Program-made: the position numbers and the translations under genes | Origin: Chlorobiota bacterium | GTDB lineage: Bacteria > Bacteroidota > Ignavibacteria > Kapaibacteriales > NICIL-2 | DNA: 40,439 nt | NCBI GenBank assembly: GCA_026415505.1 | Contig: JAOAGY010000037.1 | Coordinates: forward strand, 1 to 40,439 | Direction of reading: 5' to 3' | Part shown: positions 1-4,420 of the stretch, in pieces | Numbering within the stretch: the first letter of the stretch is position 1 | Layout: every line of letters begins with the position of its first letter | The notes under the pieces: model-generated | What the model saw: the letters and a program-made list of their open reading frames with translations, nothing else | Database searches by the model: none | What the model was told of the DNA's origin: nothing

Positions 1-141
1 AATCCGCAACTCCCAGTCCGGGTAGGACGGATCGCGTCCGGTTGTCGGCAAAACTACTTTGTGACCAATCCGCAACCGCAACCGTGCGCTTGTCATCATC
101 GGTGGGTTGTCGGCAAAACTACTTTGTGACCAATCCGCAAC
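1..141. CRISPR. End of a CRISPR array (two full repeats plus the tail of a third)
   Basis: Two identical 36-bp repeats lie at 41-76 and 106-141. They begin GTTGTCGG and end AATCCGCAAC. The last 10 bases of another copy are at 1-10. The intervening unique sequences are 30 bp (11-40) and 29 bp (77-105), giving a CRISPR-like period of 65-66 bp. The repeat ends can pair (GTTG-CGG with CCG-CAAC, one bulged T). The array stops 12 bp before the stop codon of the neighbouring minus-strand gene, leaving no room for a leader, so this is probably the leader-distal end and the leader and any cas genes lie left of the window. A 36-bp repeat with 29-30-bp spacers is common for type II and also seen for type VI-B; the type cannot be decided here. 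Confidence 0.85.
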
Positions 142-903: not shown

Positions 904-1199
904 AGACCCTGAAACAAGTTCAGGGTGACAGGCTTTTTCGAGTGCGCGATCACCGTCGGTCATGCTGAACTTGTTTCAGCATCTCTCGCACTCCTCCTGC
1001 CCGTCATGCCGAACTTGTTTCGGCATCTCACACGTTTTTTCCCGTCATGCCGAACTCGTTTCGGCATCCCACAAAGACCCTGAAACAAGTTCAGGGTGAC
1101 AGGCTGCGTTACCGTCATGCTGAACTTGTTTCGGCATCTCAAAAGACCCTGAAACAAGTTCAGGGTGACGGACTGTGCTTTACACGTTCAGGGTGACAC
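904..1199. repeat. Array I of two interleaved hairpin repeats (types A and B)
   Basis: This fills most of the 424-bp gap between the acyltransferase and GT9 genes. Type A units (GTCATGCCGAACTTGTTTC plus GGCATCTC) lie at about 958-985, 1003-1030, 1043-1070 and 1112-1140. Type B units (AGACCCTGAAACAAGTTCAG plus GGTGACA, the opposite orientation of the same GAACTTGTTTC core) lie at about 904-930, 1075-1101 and 1144-1170, with a half unit at about 1182-1199. Each unit is an inverted repeat: ATGCCGAA/TTCGGCAT or CCCTGAA/TTCAGGG around a 5-nt loop. They resemble REP-type dispersed palindromes. No gene-like coding is seen in the gap. Confidence 0.9.
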
Positions 1200-1213
1200 A
1201 CTGGAGTGCATGA

Positions 1214-2569
1214 TCAACAAACACGAAGACACGCTTCCACCACCGCCAACGGCGGAATACGACAGATACTTTCCTCCGATGGACTGAGCACTACCACAAA
1301 AGGCACACCGAACGGATACCACTCGGCGACCTTGATCAGCTCGGCATAGAGTCCGACAACTGGTTTGCCCAGTGCTGCGGCGATGTGAATGGCTGCTGTG
1401 TCGGGCGAGAGCACCCACGCCGATCCAGCAACGAGCGCGACAAGCTCTTCAACACTGCCGAAAAAGACATGACACCGAGGATGCGCAAGGCGTTCGACCA
1501 CGAGCCGAGCTTCGTCCCACTGCGACGGCGCGGCAGTGACGACAAACGCCATGTGCGGGAAGCAATCGAGCAATTGCTGCAATACCGACTGCGCGTGGTC
1601 GGGTTGCCATCGCCGATTCGGGGAATATGCCGATAGATTCACCACCGCATAGGGATTGCCCGAGAGCATCTGCCATGCGATCGGCTCGGCGTCGCGTGCC
1701 CAGCAAAGCGGCACTGCCGGCTGCACGGTCCCCAAGCCACGAGCACTCGACCATTGCCACACCTTCCGACATGCACCAGGAGCGAGCGGTACGTACTGGC
1801 GCGGTGTTTGCTCGATGCTCGTCGCCGGGGCGATCGTTTCCTGTCCCATGCGCAGCAGTGTCTGGGACCAGTGTTCGCGTCCGGGATAATGCCGCGGCTG
1901 GCGGTGAAACACTTTTCCGTAGAGCGCCGCACGTTCGTGGTGCCATGGCGCGACCAGCTCGGCTTCCGGAGCAATCGCACGCGCCAGCAGCGCTGCTTTG
2001 GTCATCCGTGTAAACATCAGCGCAAAGACGACGTCGTAGTCTCCTCCCAGCCGAGCAATTGCCCGAAGCCAGGAGATATGAAACCCGTGCCTCGGATGAA
2101 TCGCCACGGTGCGGGCAATGTGTGGGTCTTGCTCGATAAGCCTCTCGTTGCGCGTGGAGCTGAGCACGGTCACGTGCGCCTGTGGCAGTGCTCGTCGCAG
2201 CCACTCCACAAGCGGCGTCGTCACAATGTAGTCACCGATGGCATCGTATCGGAACAGCAGCACCGAGCGCACTGCTTCACCAGGAATCGGCTCGTTCGGA
2301 TCGAATCGTGGCGAGCGAGCCAGCATGTCGAACACCAGCCGCTTGATCAGCGGCGAATGCTCTGTCGAACGTCCATCGCTTGCATCGAGTGGTGGCACAC
2401 ATCGAGCGACGAACGGCGTATGCACCCAGGACGGGACAATCAGCGCTCGACCGTTTCGCCGCGCGATGTCGAGACGTTCGGCATCCCACGATGCATCCTC
2501 TATGGTGCCCCATGTCGGGGTGGAGAAAAAATGCGGGAATGCCTGCGTTTCTGGTGAGGCTGTGTTCAT
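1214..2569 (-). CDS. Glycosyltransferase family 9 (heptosyltransferase-like) protein
   Basis: 451 aa. After an unusual N-terminal extension of about 100 residues, the GT9/heptosyltransferase fold begins with LLFRYDAIGDYIVTTPLVEW, the usual N-terminal motif of ADP-heptose:LPS heptosyltransferases. The C-terminal half has the donor-site motif SPDTAAIHIAAALGKPVVGL. The expected role is transfer of a heptose or other sugar to lipid A core or another cell-surface glycan at the inner face of the inner membrane. The start is the ATG at 2569; a near-consensus promoter TAGTTTCG (2584-2577) sits almost on it, so the mRNA may be almost leaderless or the real start may lie further in. Repeat arrays flank the gene on both sides. 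Donor and acceptor sugars are not predictable. Confidence 0.88.
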   Translation of the reverse strand: MNTASPETQAFPHFFSTPTWGTIEDASWDAERLDIARRNGRALIVPSWVHTPFVARCVPPLDASDGRSTEHSPLIKRLVFDMLARSPRFDPNEPIPGEAVRSVLLFRYDAIGDYIVTTPLVEWLRRALPQAHVTVLSSTRNERLIEQDPHIARTVAIHPRHGFHISWLRAIARLGGDYDVVFALMFTRMTKAALLARAIAPEAELVAPWHHERAALYGKVFHRQPRHYPGREHWSQTLLRMGQETIAPATSIEQTPRQYVPLAPGACRKVWQWSSARGLGTVQPAVPLCWARDAEPIAWQMLSGNPYAVVNLSAYSPNRRWQPDHAQSVLQQLLDCFPHMAFVVTAAPSQWDEARLVVERLAHPRCHVFFGSVEELVALVAGSAWVLSPDTAAIHIAAALGKPVVGLYAELIKVAEWYPFGVPFVVVLSPSEESICRIPPLAVVEACLRVC

Positions 2570-2576
2570 CGGGCGG

Positions 2577-2584
2577 CGAAACTA
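2577..2584 (-). promoter_or_regulatory. Possible -7 element before the GT9 gene
   Basis: The minus strand reads TAGTTTCG, one mismatch from TAnnTTTG. It lies only 8 bp before the ATG at 2569, so if it is used the leader would be very short. Weak call. Confidence 0.3.
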
Positions 2585-2612
2585 CGATGTGAGCGGAGCA
2601 ACTCCTTATTGG

Positions 2613-2792
2613 CTCGTCATGCCGAACTTGTTTCAGCATCTCTCGCACTCCTGCCCGTCATGCCGAACTCGTTTCGGCATCTCACACGTTTTTTCCCGTC
2701 ATGCCGAACTCGTTTCGGCATCTCACAAAGACCCTGAAACACGTTCAGGGTGACAGACTGTGTTTCTGTCATGCCGAACGCCCGGGGGCATC
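2613..2792. repeat. Array II of hairpin repeats, running into the GT4 stop codon
   Basis: Type A units lie at about 2614-2642, 2656-2683 and 2697-2724, one type B unit at about 2727-2755, and a degenerate A unit at about 2767-2792 (ATGCC...GGCAT arms kept, loop replaced by a GC-rich stretch). The last unit overlaps the 3' end of the GT4 gene and supplies its stop codon. The order A-A-A-B matches the other arrays. Confidence 0.88.
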
Positions 2793-3875
2793 GTCGCTCG
2801 CTGCCGAGCCGGTTGCCACGCAACGATAGACCTCGACCGTTCGCTCCACGCATTCATCCCACGAAAAGAGCGCTGCGCGCCGACGTCCAGCAGCAATCAG
2901 CCGATGGCGCCTGTCGTCGTCATCGAGCACCCGGCAGAGCGCATCGGCGATCGCCTCCGCATCGCTCGGATCGGCATACTCGGCAGCATCGCTGCAAATT
3001 TCCGGGAGTGCACCACAACTGCTGGCAACGACCGGACAACCGAAACGCATCGCTTCGAGCACCGGCAAACCGAATCCTTCGTACCACGAGGGATAAATCA
3101 GCGCGCTGGCGCGGGCGTACAACAGAGGCAACCACCGGTCGGGGACGAATCCCATGTGAACGATATCAGCTTTCGCCGGCGATGCCGCCAGCACTGCGCG
3201 AATCTCCTCTGTACCGTAGCCCCAGCCCCCGACCAGAAGAAGCTTTTCCGGGCGACCGCGACGCTTGGCGATTTCGAACGCGCTGACGATCCCGCGGATG
3301 TTCTTGCGCCGTTCGAGCGTACCGACGAAGAGCACATAGCGCTGGGGCAGATCGAACCATCCGGACACAGGATCGGCTTCGGCGAAACGATCGCTGCCGA
3401 GATGCACAACGCAGACGCGATCGCCCAGATGCGGGAAATACCGCAACACCTGCTGCCGCGTGAATTCCGAGATCGCGATGACGGCTGCAAGGTCGTCGCG
3501 AACGAGTGTCGCGGTCACGTCGGCGATCCGTTTGGCGGCGAACGCAGCGGGAACGTAATCTTGCTCGAACACCACCATGTCGTGGACAGTGACGACCTTC
3601 GGAAGGGCAGACCGTCGCACCGCGATCCGAAAATCCGGACCGTGGAAGACCGCATCATCGGAGCGCAGCGGCACCAGCGGCAGAAGTGCGCGGCAACCGA
3701 TACCCAATGTGTCTCTGACGGCGCGGGCAGCTCGACTGCGTGACAGTCGTGCGACCGGCGCAAGTTCGACGTCGCTGCGTGCAGCCAAGCGTCGGAGCAG
3801 CTCCGTCGTGTACACGCCGATGCCGGTCGCGCGGCGCGGATCGAGGGTGCTGATGTCCAAGTACGTGCGAACCAT
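2769..3875 (-). CDS. Glycosyltransferase family 4 (GT-B) protein
   Basis: 368 aa from the ATG at 3875 (MVRTYLDIS); the only start further upstream is a TTG at 3908 with no ribosome site. The protein has the GT4 layout: an N-terminal acceptor domain (GIGVYTTELLRRL near residue 19), a linker and a donor-binding domain with VLFVGTLERRKNI, and the E-x7-E signature YPSWYEGFGLPVLEAMRFGCPVV typical of retaining GT4 enzymes. It likely transfers a nucleotide-activated hexose in surface polysaccharide assembly, in line with the adjacent GT9 and acyltransferase genes. The last seven codons and the TGA stop (2769-2771) fall inside a degenerate hairpin repeat, suggesting that the original C-terminus was replaced or trimmed by the repeat. 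Sugar specificity is unknown. Confidence 0.9.
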   Translation of the reverse strand: MVRTYLDISTLDPRRATGIGVYTTELLRRLAARSDVELAPVARLSRSRAARAVRDTLGIGCRALLPLVPLRSDDAVFHGPDFRIAVRRSALPKVVTVHDMVVFEQDYVPAAFAAKRIADVTATLVRDDLAAVIAISEFTRQQVLRYFPHLGDRVCVVHLGSDRFAEADPVSGWFDLPQRYVLFVGTLERRKNIRGIVSAFEIAKRRGRPEKLLLVGGWGYGTEEIRAVLAASPAKADIVHMGFVPDRWLPLLYARASALIYPSWYEGFGLPVLEAMRFGCPVVASSCGALPEICSDAAEYADPSDAEAIADALCRVLDDDDRRHRLIAAGRRRAALFSWDECVERTVEVYRCVATGSAASDDAPGRSA

Positions 3876-3949
3876 CGAAGCGATGAGGGGTAGGTTGGCA
3901 TGTTGCAAAATGCATCGCCGAGGCTTGCACGCTCTTGGTTCGTCTTTTG

Positions 3950-4385
3950 TTTGTCATGCCGAACTTGTTTCGGCATCTCATGCCTTTTGCCTGTCATGCC
4001 GAACTCGTTTCGGCATCTCACAAAGACCCTGAAACAAGCTCAGGGTGACACGCTGTGGTTGTGTGTATGCCCTTCCTGCCCGTCATGCTGAACTTGTTTC
4101 AGCATCTCACACGTTTTTTCCCGTCATGCCGAACTGGTTTCGGCATCCCCAAAGACCCTGAAACACGTTCAGGGTGACAGGCTGTGGTTGTGTGTATGCC
4201 CTCTTATCCGTCATGCTGAACTTGTTTCGGCATCTCACACGTTTTTTCCCGTCATGCCGAACTCGTTTCGGCATCCCCAAAGACCCTGAAACGAGTTCAG
4301 GGTGACAAGGAATGCGAAGAGACCCTGAAACACGTTCAGGGTGACACGCAAGGGGAAGACCCTGAATGAGTTCAGGGATGACAAC
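3950..4385. repeat. Array III of hairpin repeats with A-A-B higher-order units
   Basis: This fills the 545-bp gap between GT4 and the TonB receptor. Units: A 3952-3980, A 3992-4020, B 4024-4051; A 4081-4108, A 4122-4149, B 4152-4180; A 4209-4236, A 4250-4277, B 4280-4307; then B 4319-4346 and a variant B 4356-4383. The order A-A-B is thus repeated three times. Loops vary (CTTGT, CTCGT, CTGGT, and the B forms ACAAG, ACACG, ACGAG), but most stems stay paired. No convincing gene is present. Confidence 0.9.
4052..4307. repeat. 129-bp tandem duplication of an A-A-B composite
   Basis: The string GCTGTGGTTGTGTGTATGCC occurs at 4052 and again at 4181, a shift of 129 bp. The sequence after each copy matches through two A units, the CACGTTTTTTCCCGTC linker and one B unit. 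Copies are about 4052-4180 and 4181-4307, with scattered differences in loops and one linker. Confidence 0.85.
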
Positions 4386-4420
4386 CAAGAGCGAGGAGAC
4401 CTCAAACACAACGATGGCGA

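What the first reader, a model, noticed from the sequence alone, without database searches (positions are those of the whole stretch)
904..4385. About 23 hairpin repeats of two families confined to the gaps of the glycan locus
Types A and B share the GAACTTGTTTC core in opposite orientation. Outer arms differ in a paired manner: ATGCCGAA/TTCGGCAT, ATGCTGAA/TTCAGCAT, CCCTGAA/TTCAGGG. One unit (about 1112-1140) has ATGCTGAA with TTCGGCAT, a possible G-T intermediate. Such paired change suggests that the hairpin itself is selected or copied as a structure. None of these units was seen in the other 36 kb.
Basis: partly seen in the sequence, partly recalled or inferred. Interest (0 to 1): 0.6.

Follow-up and report, generated by a model that had tools for sequence, protein, structure and literature searches.

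The report
CGTC-type REP arrays with unlike arms
The hairpins are a known kind of short bacterial repeat (CGTC-tagged REPs), here multiplied into about 56 arrays across the genome, and across the phylum neighbouring copies that face each other always carry different stems, which keeps each copy folding as its own small hairpin.

Summary
The units are real (21 intact plus 2-3 decayed at 904-4387), but types A and B are one element on opposite strands, and they are not confined to the glycan locus. The genome (2.29 Mb, a Kapabacteria/Ignavibacteria-like relative) holds 352 exact and about 472 PWM-level units in 56 intergenic clusters, against 6 and 0 exact hits in two congeners. They are CGTC-tagged REPs (Di Nocera 2013), a known kind without a known transposase. 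The only Y1 transposase gene found in this genome belongs with another, GTAG-type REP. What is new is a strict rule. Within each array every TGC-stem unit lies on one strand and every CCC-stem unit on the other (1 exception in 471; shuffles about 174). In 58 listed outward-facing dimers from 16 other genera of the phylum, partners never share a stem and 57 differ at two or more of three stem pairs (about 31 expected). DNA folding energies put a threshold there: like arms form one long hairpin, unlike arms mostly two separate hairpins. Most carriers tested lack a recognisable SbcD, which weakens the published SbcCD explanation. Best reading: the mobile unit is a dimer of two unlike hairpins, recently expanded here by tandem duplication. 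The mobiliser remains unknown.

The parts
904..929 (-). unit, type B (CCC/GGG stem)
959..984 (+). unit, type A (TGC/GCA stem, T-A at pair 8/20)
1003..1028 (+). unit, type A
1044..1069 (+). unit, type A; with 1075-1100 a dimer predicted to fold as two separate hairpins
1075..1100 (-). unit, type B
1144..1169 (-). unit, type B
1182..1196 (-). decayed partial type B unit
   Evidence: family D7
2616..2641 (+). unit, type A with C8-A20
2657..2682 (+). unit, type A
2698..2723 (+). unit, type A
2729..2754 (-). unit, type B
2768..2792 (+). decayed type A unit
   Evidence: family D3, 76%
3953..3978 (+). unit, type A
3993..4018 (+). unit, type A
4024..4049 (-). unit, type B
4082..4107 (+). unit, type A
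4123..4148 (+). unit, type A
4153..4178 (-). unit, type B
4210..4235 (+). unit, type A with T8-G20
4251..4276 (+). unit, type A
4281..4306 (-). unit, type B
4320..4345 (-). unit, type B
4356..4385 (-). decayed type B unit with indels
   Evidence: family D5, 66%

Best explanation
These are CGTC-tagged REPs. The mobile unit is an outward-facing dimer, 5'GTC-hairpin X, a short spacer, then hairpin Y inverted, in which X and Y have different stems. The difference stops the two arms pairing with each other as one long hairpin, so each arm folds as its own 8-bp hairpin with a 5-nt loop on single-stranded DNA, which is the form an ssDNA-acting transposase or repair enzyme would recognise. In this lineage one dimer type (TGC/CCC) spread to about 56 intergenic sites in either orientation, and each copy then grew into an array by tandem duplication, so every array keeps the strand assignment of its founder. 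Shown: identity of the element, copy numbers, the strand rule, the unlike-arm rule across the phylum, repeated copies of the same dimer with its spacer in several genomes, and three sites with short gene gaps instead of arrays in a congener. Inferred: that the dimer is what moves, that separate folding is the selected property, and that arrays grew by duplication. Not identified: the enzyme.
For: Genome count 352 exact hits with control 0; 472 units of 20 bits or more in 56 clusters. Strand rule: 470 of 471 units; inverted neighbours all hetero (201), same-strand neighbours all homo (213), the one exception a TGC/GGG hybrid unit; shuffled labels give 174 violations, minimum 148. Class survey: 34 of 149 genomes have the unit, next highest 41 copies, congeners 6 and 0. 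Dimers in other genomes: all listed ones with unlike stems at gaps 2-32 and 33-63; listed dimers 58, none identical (9.1 expected), 1 with a single difference (17.5 expected), none of 20,000 random pairings as extreme; collapsed to 33 genus-level types in 16 genera, P(no identical) 0.003 and none of 50,000 pairings had as few with 0-1 differences. Inward-facing pairs occur only here and in G405. Energy: identical arms favour one long hairpin by 15 kcal/mol; one difference by 5-8; differences at 5 and 6 by 3.4; differences at (5,8), (6,8) or (5,6,8) favour separate hairpins by 2-5; 96% of 73 own dimers favour separate. Within this genome partners also differ at position 8 in 41 of 51 clusters, 34 expected, p 0.0006. 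The same dimer plus spacer recurs in G214 (5 copies listed), G109 (4), G033 (4) and G317 (3). Gene gaps of 116, 105 and 148 bp in G027 where three arrays sit here.
Against: No transposition was observed and no enzyme identified. Pseudomonas REPINs have like arms and are modelled as one long hairpin (PMC3116915), and homodimers predominate in other CGTC families (Di Nocera 2013), so unlike arms are not needed for every REP. Differences at positions 5 and 6 alone, present in about a fifth of the listed dimers, still slightly favour the long hairpin in the model, and a few own dimers (3 of 73 by energy, 7 by full fold) favour it, for example window 1114-1169. Shared blocks between arrays are few and do not all end at unit borders, so ectopic recombination also contributes.
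Confidence: 0.55

Rival explanations
1. Palindrome clearance: dimers with identical arms do form, but long perfect inverted repeats are cut (SbcCD) or deleted during replication, so only unlike pairs survive. Unlike arms then have no role in mobility.
For: Proposed by Di Nocera et al. for REP heterodimers (PMC3733652). The same folding energies apply, and the rule concerns inverted neighbours.
Against: SbcD (TIGR00619) has no match in 8 of 16 carrier or related genomes tested, including this one, and exceeds the family cut-off in only 2, while 13 of 14 control genomes ring; the rule still holds in the carriers without it. The rule also holds at 33-63 nt gaps. Replication slippage or another nuclease could still do it, and a diverged SbcD could be missed.
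Confidence: 0.3
2. Pure descent: one TGC/CCC dimer was inherited and copied, and the strand rule is only its footprint, with no constraint on unlike arms.
For: Explains the strand rule inside arrays of this genome completely.
Against: Other genera use many different stem pairs (TGC/TCC, TGC/TTC, TTC/CCC, AGC/TTC, ACC/TTC, TCC/TTC), never identical, and position 8 differs beyond chance among clusters here.
Confidence: 0.1
3. RAYT-driven REPs: the genome's Y1 transposase mobilises these units as RAYTs do GTAG REPs.
For: The genome has one REP-associated Y1 gene. In the class 32 of 34 unit-bearing genomes have a Y1 match, against about 87 of 115 without units.
Against: The gene carries a GTAG-type REP (GGTAGGGGCACGTTGC...) in frame and no CGTC unit nearby. 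About 30 Y1 loci were scanned and only one (L218, an IS200 in G215) has CGTC-like units within 1.5 kb. Dimer carriers G405, G342 and G210 have no PF01797 match, although their dimers may be old.
Confidence: 0.12
4. Transcript-level elements: terminators or mRNA 3'-end stabilisers selected as RNA hairpins.
For: Intergenic and close to gene ends; covariation of arms.
Against: Array polarity is independent of flanking gene direction (16 with both genes in one sense, 12 in the other, 9 divergent, 8 convergent) and of GC skew. G-T and C-A intermediates are equally frequent (18 to 17), so neither strand is favoured. No T-run follows the stem and there is no Rfam match.
Confidence: 0.06

Closest known systems
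CGTC-tagged REPs (Di Nocera, De Gregorio and Rocco 2013, PMC3733652)
   Same: Unpaired (C/T)GTC tag, 8-bp stem, 5-nt loop, intergenic, outward-facing dimers, paired stem variants, no linked transposase; reported from Chlorobi and Bacteroidetes among others.
   Different: Here large clusters dominate (they report clusters as rare), the arms are always unlike, and the 3' tail reads CTC/CTT rather than their usual CCA. Exact family assignment by their Figure 2 could not be checked.
REPINs of Pseudomonas fluorescens (Bertels and Rainey 2011, PMC3116915)
   Same: An inverted pair of REPs with a spacer behaves as the copied unit.
   Different: REPIN arms are alike and fold into one long hairpin, and the tag is GTAG with linked RAYT genes. 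Here the arms are unlike, the predicted fold is two hairpins, and no RAYT is linked.
E. coli BIMEs (Y and Z REPs)
   Same: Tandem arrays with two REP variants in opposite orientation.
   Different: GTAG tag, bulged stems, TnpA_REP present; sequence unrelated.

Membership tests
CGTC-tagged REPs | unpaired 5' CGTC (or TGTC) tag | tested here: met
   GTC fixed in the search pattern, preceded by C 46-52% or T 41-51%
CGTC-tagged REPs | stem of 8-9 bp with A-T first pair, loop 4-5 nt | tested here: met
   8 bp and 5 nt
CGTC-tagged REPs | short unpaired 3' tail, mostly CCA | tested here: inconclusive
   a tail is present but reads CTC/CTT
CGTC-tagged REPs | dispersed, intergenic, high copy | tested here: met
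   472 units, 56 clusters, 14 units inside predicted genes
CGTC-tagged REPs | not linked to a transposase gene | tested here: met
RAYT-associated (GTAG) REPs | GTAG tag | tested here: not met
   tag is GTC followed by the A of the first stem pair
RAYT-associated (GTAG) REPs | RAYT gene flanked by the same REP | tested here: not met
   the own RAYT has GTAG REPs only
REPIN | inverted doublet recurring as a unit | tested here: met
   same dimer and spacer 3-5 times in G214, G109, G033, G317
REPIN | arms pair into one long hairpin | tested here: not met
   separate hairpins favoured in 96% of 73 own dimers
REPIN | excision or transposition intermediates seen in reads | not testable with these tools
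   no reads held
CRISPR array | identical direct repeats with unique spacers of constant length | tested here: not met
   repeats alternate in strand and type, spacers of varied length and partly shared

The most novel reading that the evidence does not exclude
A distinct class of non-autonomous mobile DNA in Bacteroidota: a minimal element made of two mutually non-pairing hairpins, where unlikeness of the arms is required for movement, mobilised by an enzyme that is not a RAYT.
Probability: 0.3. Interest if true: 0.7.

Novelty: new variant of a known kind. Interest (0 to 1): 0.48.

Why it matters
What moves CGTC REPs, and why so many REP dimers are heterodimers, were left open in 2013. A quantitative rule (two or more of three stem pairs differ, at the energy threshold between one long and two separate hairpins), holding in genomes without a recognisable SbcD, gives a direct test between clearance and a two-hairpin substrate. 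This genome, with hundreds of copies and nearly empty congeners, is a good place to look for the mobiliser. For annotation, the repeats should be labelled CGTC REPs and not taken as glycan-locus regulators.

Tried and rejected
Polarity of arrays against gene direction: no link. Polarity against local GC skew, as a proxy for replication direction: no link. Rfam: only a tRNA in the window. RAYT linkage: not supported; one IS200 copy lies in a unit-rich stretch of G215 (L218) and looks incidental. A first attempt to compute the extended fold by forbidding local pairs failed and those energies are discarded (replaced); the enforced-closure energies kept local hairpins for unlike arms and are not relied on. 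Literature search by sequence words found nothing useful.
Full report
WHAT IS THERE. The window lies in a 2.29-Mb, 42-contig genome as contig C36. Its proteins include a T9SS sorting domain and its GatB is 62-65% identical to GatB of Ignavibacteria and Candidatus Kapaibacterium MAGs, so I treat it as a Kapabacteria/Ignavibacteria-like member of the Bacteroidota group; the exact name is unknown. Three gaps between minus-strand genes (a PglD-like acetyltransferase, two glycosyltransferases, a TonB receptor) hold 21 full units and about three decayed ones. The core word occurs 20 times against 0.5 expected.

ONE ELEMENT, TWO STEMS. Read on its own strand each unit is GTCA-(TGC or CCC)-Y-GAAC-NN-GTTTC-R-(GCA or GGG)-TCT: an unpaired GTC tag, an 8-bp stem and a 5-nt loop. 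Type B of the finding is this element on the minus strand. Covariation over 472 units is strong. At pair 8/20 the two half-changed states are equally common (T-G 18, C-A 17). Because C-A on one strand is G-T on the other, this shows no preference for either strand and no specific sign of RNA selection. Paired change may also arise without selection by hairpin-templated correction (general knowledge, not tested).

NOT CONFINED TO THE GLYCAN LOCUS. The pattern GTCANNCNGAACNNGTTTCNGNNTC hits 352 times in the genome, reversed control 0. A weight-matrix scan gives 479 hits, of which 472 score at least 20 bits, in 56 clusters of up to 40 units. Clusters avoid predicted genes (14 of 472 unit centres inside) and are unevenly spread (one in the 462-kb contig C7; p < 0.0002). 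Among 149 genomes of the class 34 have the unit; the next highest count is 41, and two congeners have 6 and 0. In the congener G027, the array near 625.6 kb lies inside a 3,071-bp block identical to G000 contig C13, so its own copies in the 1.2 Mb read are only a decayed triple at 892 kb. At three array sites flanked by orthologous genes, G027 has gaps of 105-148 bp and no array.

WHAT IT IS CALLED. Tag, stem, loop, intergenic location, dimers and lack of a linked transposase match the CGTC-tagged REPs of Di Nocera et al. 2013 (PMC3733652), known from Chlorobi and Bacteroidetes among others. [quoted passage not shown] Here the only PF01797 gene found is a REP-associated Y1 gene (NF047646, 73.6 bits, below the cut-off of 80) between hsdS and hsdR, interrupted in frame by a GTAG-type REP. 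This resembles subclass 2.4 of PMC6006769, in which REPs are inserted in tnpA_REP. It is not the cognate of the CGTC units by any evidence here.

THE STRAND RULE. In each multi-unit cluster all TGC units point one way and all CCC units the other: 470 of 471, the exception being a TGC/GGG hybrid. Inverted neighbours: 201 unlike, none alike apart from pairs involving that hybrid. Same-strand neighbours: 213 alike. Label shuffling gives on average 174 violations, never below 148. Polarity is unrelated to gene direction or GC skew. Arrays in G051, in another family of the class, appear to follow the same rule in the listed hits.

THE UNLIKE-ARM RULE. I searched 395 genomes of the phylum for inverted pairs with tags outward at gaps of 2-32 nt and 33-63 nt. 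17 and 9 genomes have them. Every listed pair has two different stems, in many combinations (TGC with CCC, TCC or TTC; TTC with CCC, AGC, ACC or TCC). Of 58 listed dimers outside this genome, 57 differ at two or more of positions 5, 6 and 8; random pairing of the same units gives 9.1 identical and 17.5 single-difference pairs. Reduced to 33 genus-level types in 16 genera the result stands. Only the first places of each genome are listed by the tool, so the count is of listed places. Inward-facing pairs at 0-30 nt occur only here and as one tandem pair in G405, so the outward-facing dimer is the basic unit. Several genomes carry 3-5 copies of the same dimer with the same spacer, as expected of a copied unit.

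WHY UNLIKE. With DNA parameters, identical arms favour one extended hairpin by 15 kcal/mol; a single differing pair still favours it by 5-8; differences at 5 and 6 by 3.4; differences at (5,8), (6,8) or all three favour two separate hairpins by 2-5. Observed dimers sit at or beyond that threshold. In this genome 96% of 73 tested dimers favour separate hairpins. The window shows both: 1044-1100 folds as two hairpins, and 1114-1169, where position 8 is the same in both arms, folds as one. At cluster level partners also differ at position 8 more than expected (41 of 51, 34 expected, p 0.0006), which is evidence within one genome that unlikeness is kept. The published suggestion is clearance of long palindromes by SbcCD. 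SbcD was not recognised in 8 of 16 genomes tested, this one included, and passed the cut-off in only two, while 13 of 14 control genomes ring. This weakens SbcCD as the general cause but does not exclude other clearance.

MECHANISM AND LIMITS. I favour a two-hairpin mobile dimer whose copies grow by tandem duplication. TnpA_REP and IS200/IS605 enzymes bind folded single-stranded hairpins strand-specifically (PMC8266576), which makes a two-hairpin substrate plausible, but no enzyme has been found: Y1 genes are common in the class (119 of 149), are not recognised in three dimer carriers and are as a rule not adjacent to units. The contrast with Pseudomonas REPINs, whose like arms form one long hairpin (PMC3116915), is the main reason to call this a variant. 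In-silico like-arm sequences were used only as folding controls. The P values treat listed dimers as exchangeable; the genus-level test is the more conservative one.

Noticed in passing
G000:C13:11037-14107 (L042) and G027:C1:623065-626135: 3,071 bp of 100% identical DNA, starting inside a pepP-like gene and including a unit array, between two species with about 67% median protein identity: recent transfer or a chimeric assembly.
   Followed up: partly
L031:1144-1731: REP-associated Y1 transposase gene between hsdS and hsdR of a type I restriction locus, interrupted in frame by a GTAG-type REP; related words also lie inside hsdR.
   Followed up: partly
window 40-141: Two exact copies of a 37-nt direct repeat, GGTTGTCGGCAAAACTACTTTGTGACCAATCCGCAAC, 65 bp apart at the contig end, unrelated to the hairpin units.
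   Followed up: no
G000:C11:34012-34170 (L040): Degenerate tandem GTGAAATGTCGGCATGACG-like repeat directly beside a unit array.
   Followed up: no
G272, G169, G190, G225, G207 (family f39): Longer CGTC dimers of 83-108 bp with related spacers, a good population for studying dimer movement.
   Followed up: no
L218 (G215), 884-2470: An IS200-type element with a stop in its transposase lies in a stretch rich in decayed AGC/TTC units.
   Followed up: partly
C22:826 and C32:26549 (contigs of G000; L048, L075): Two arrays share 292 bp at 95% including both flanks, so at least one array was copied together with its flanking DNA.
   Followed up: no
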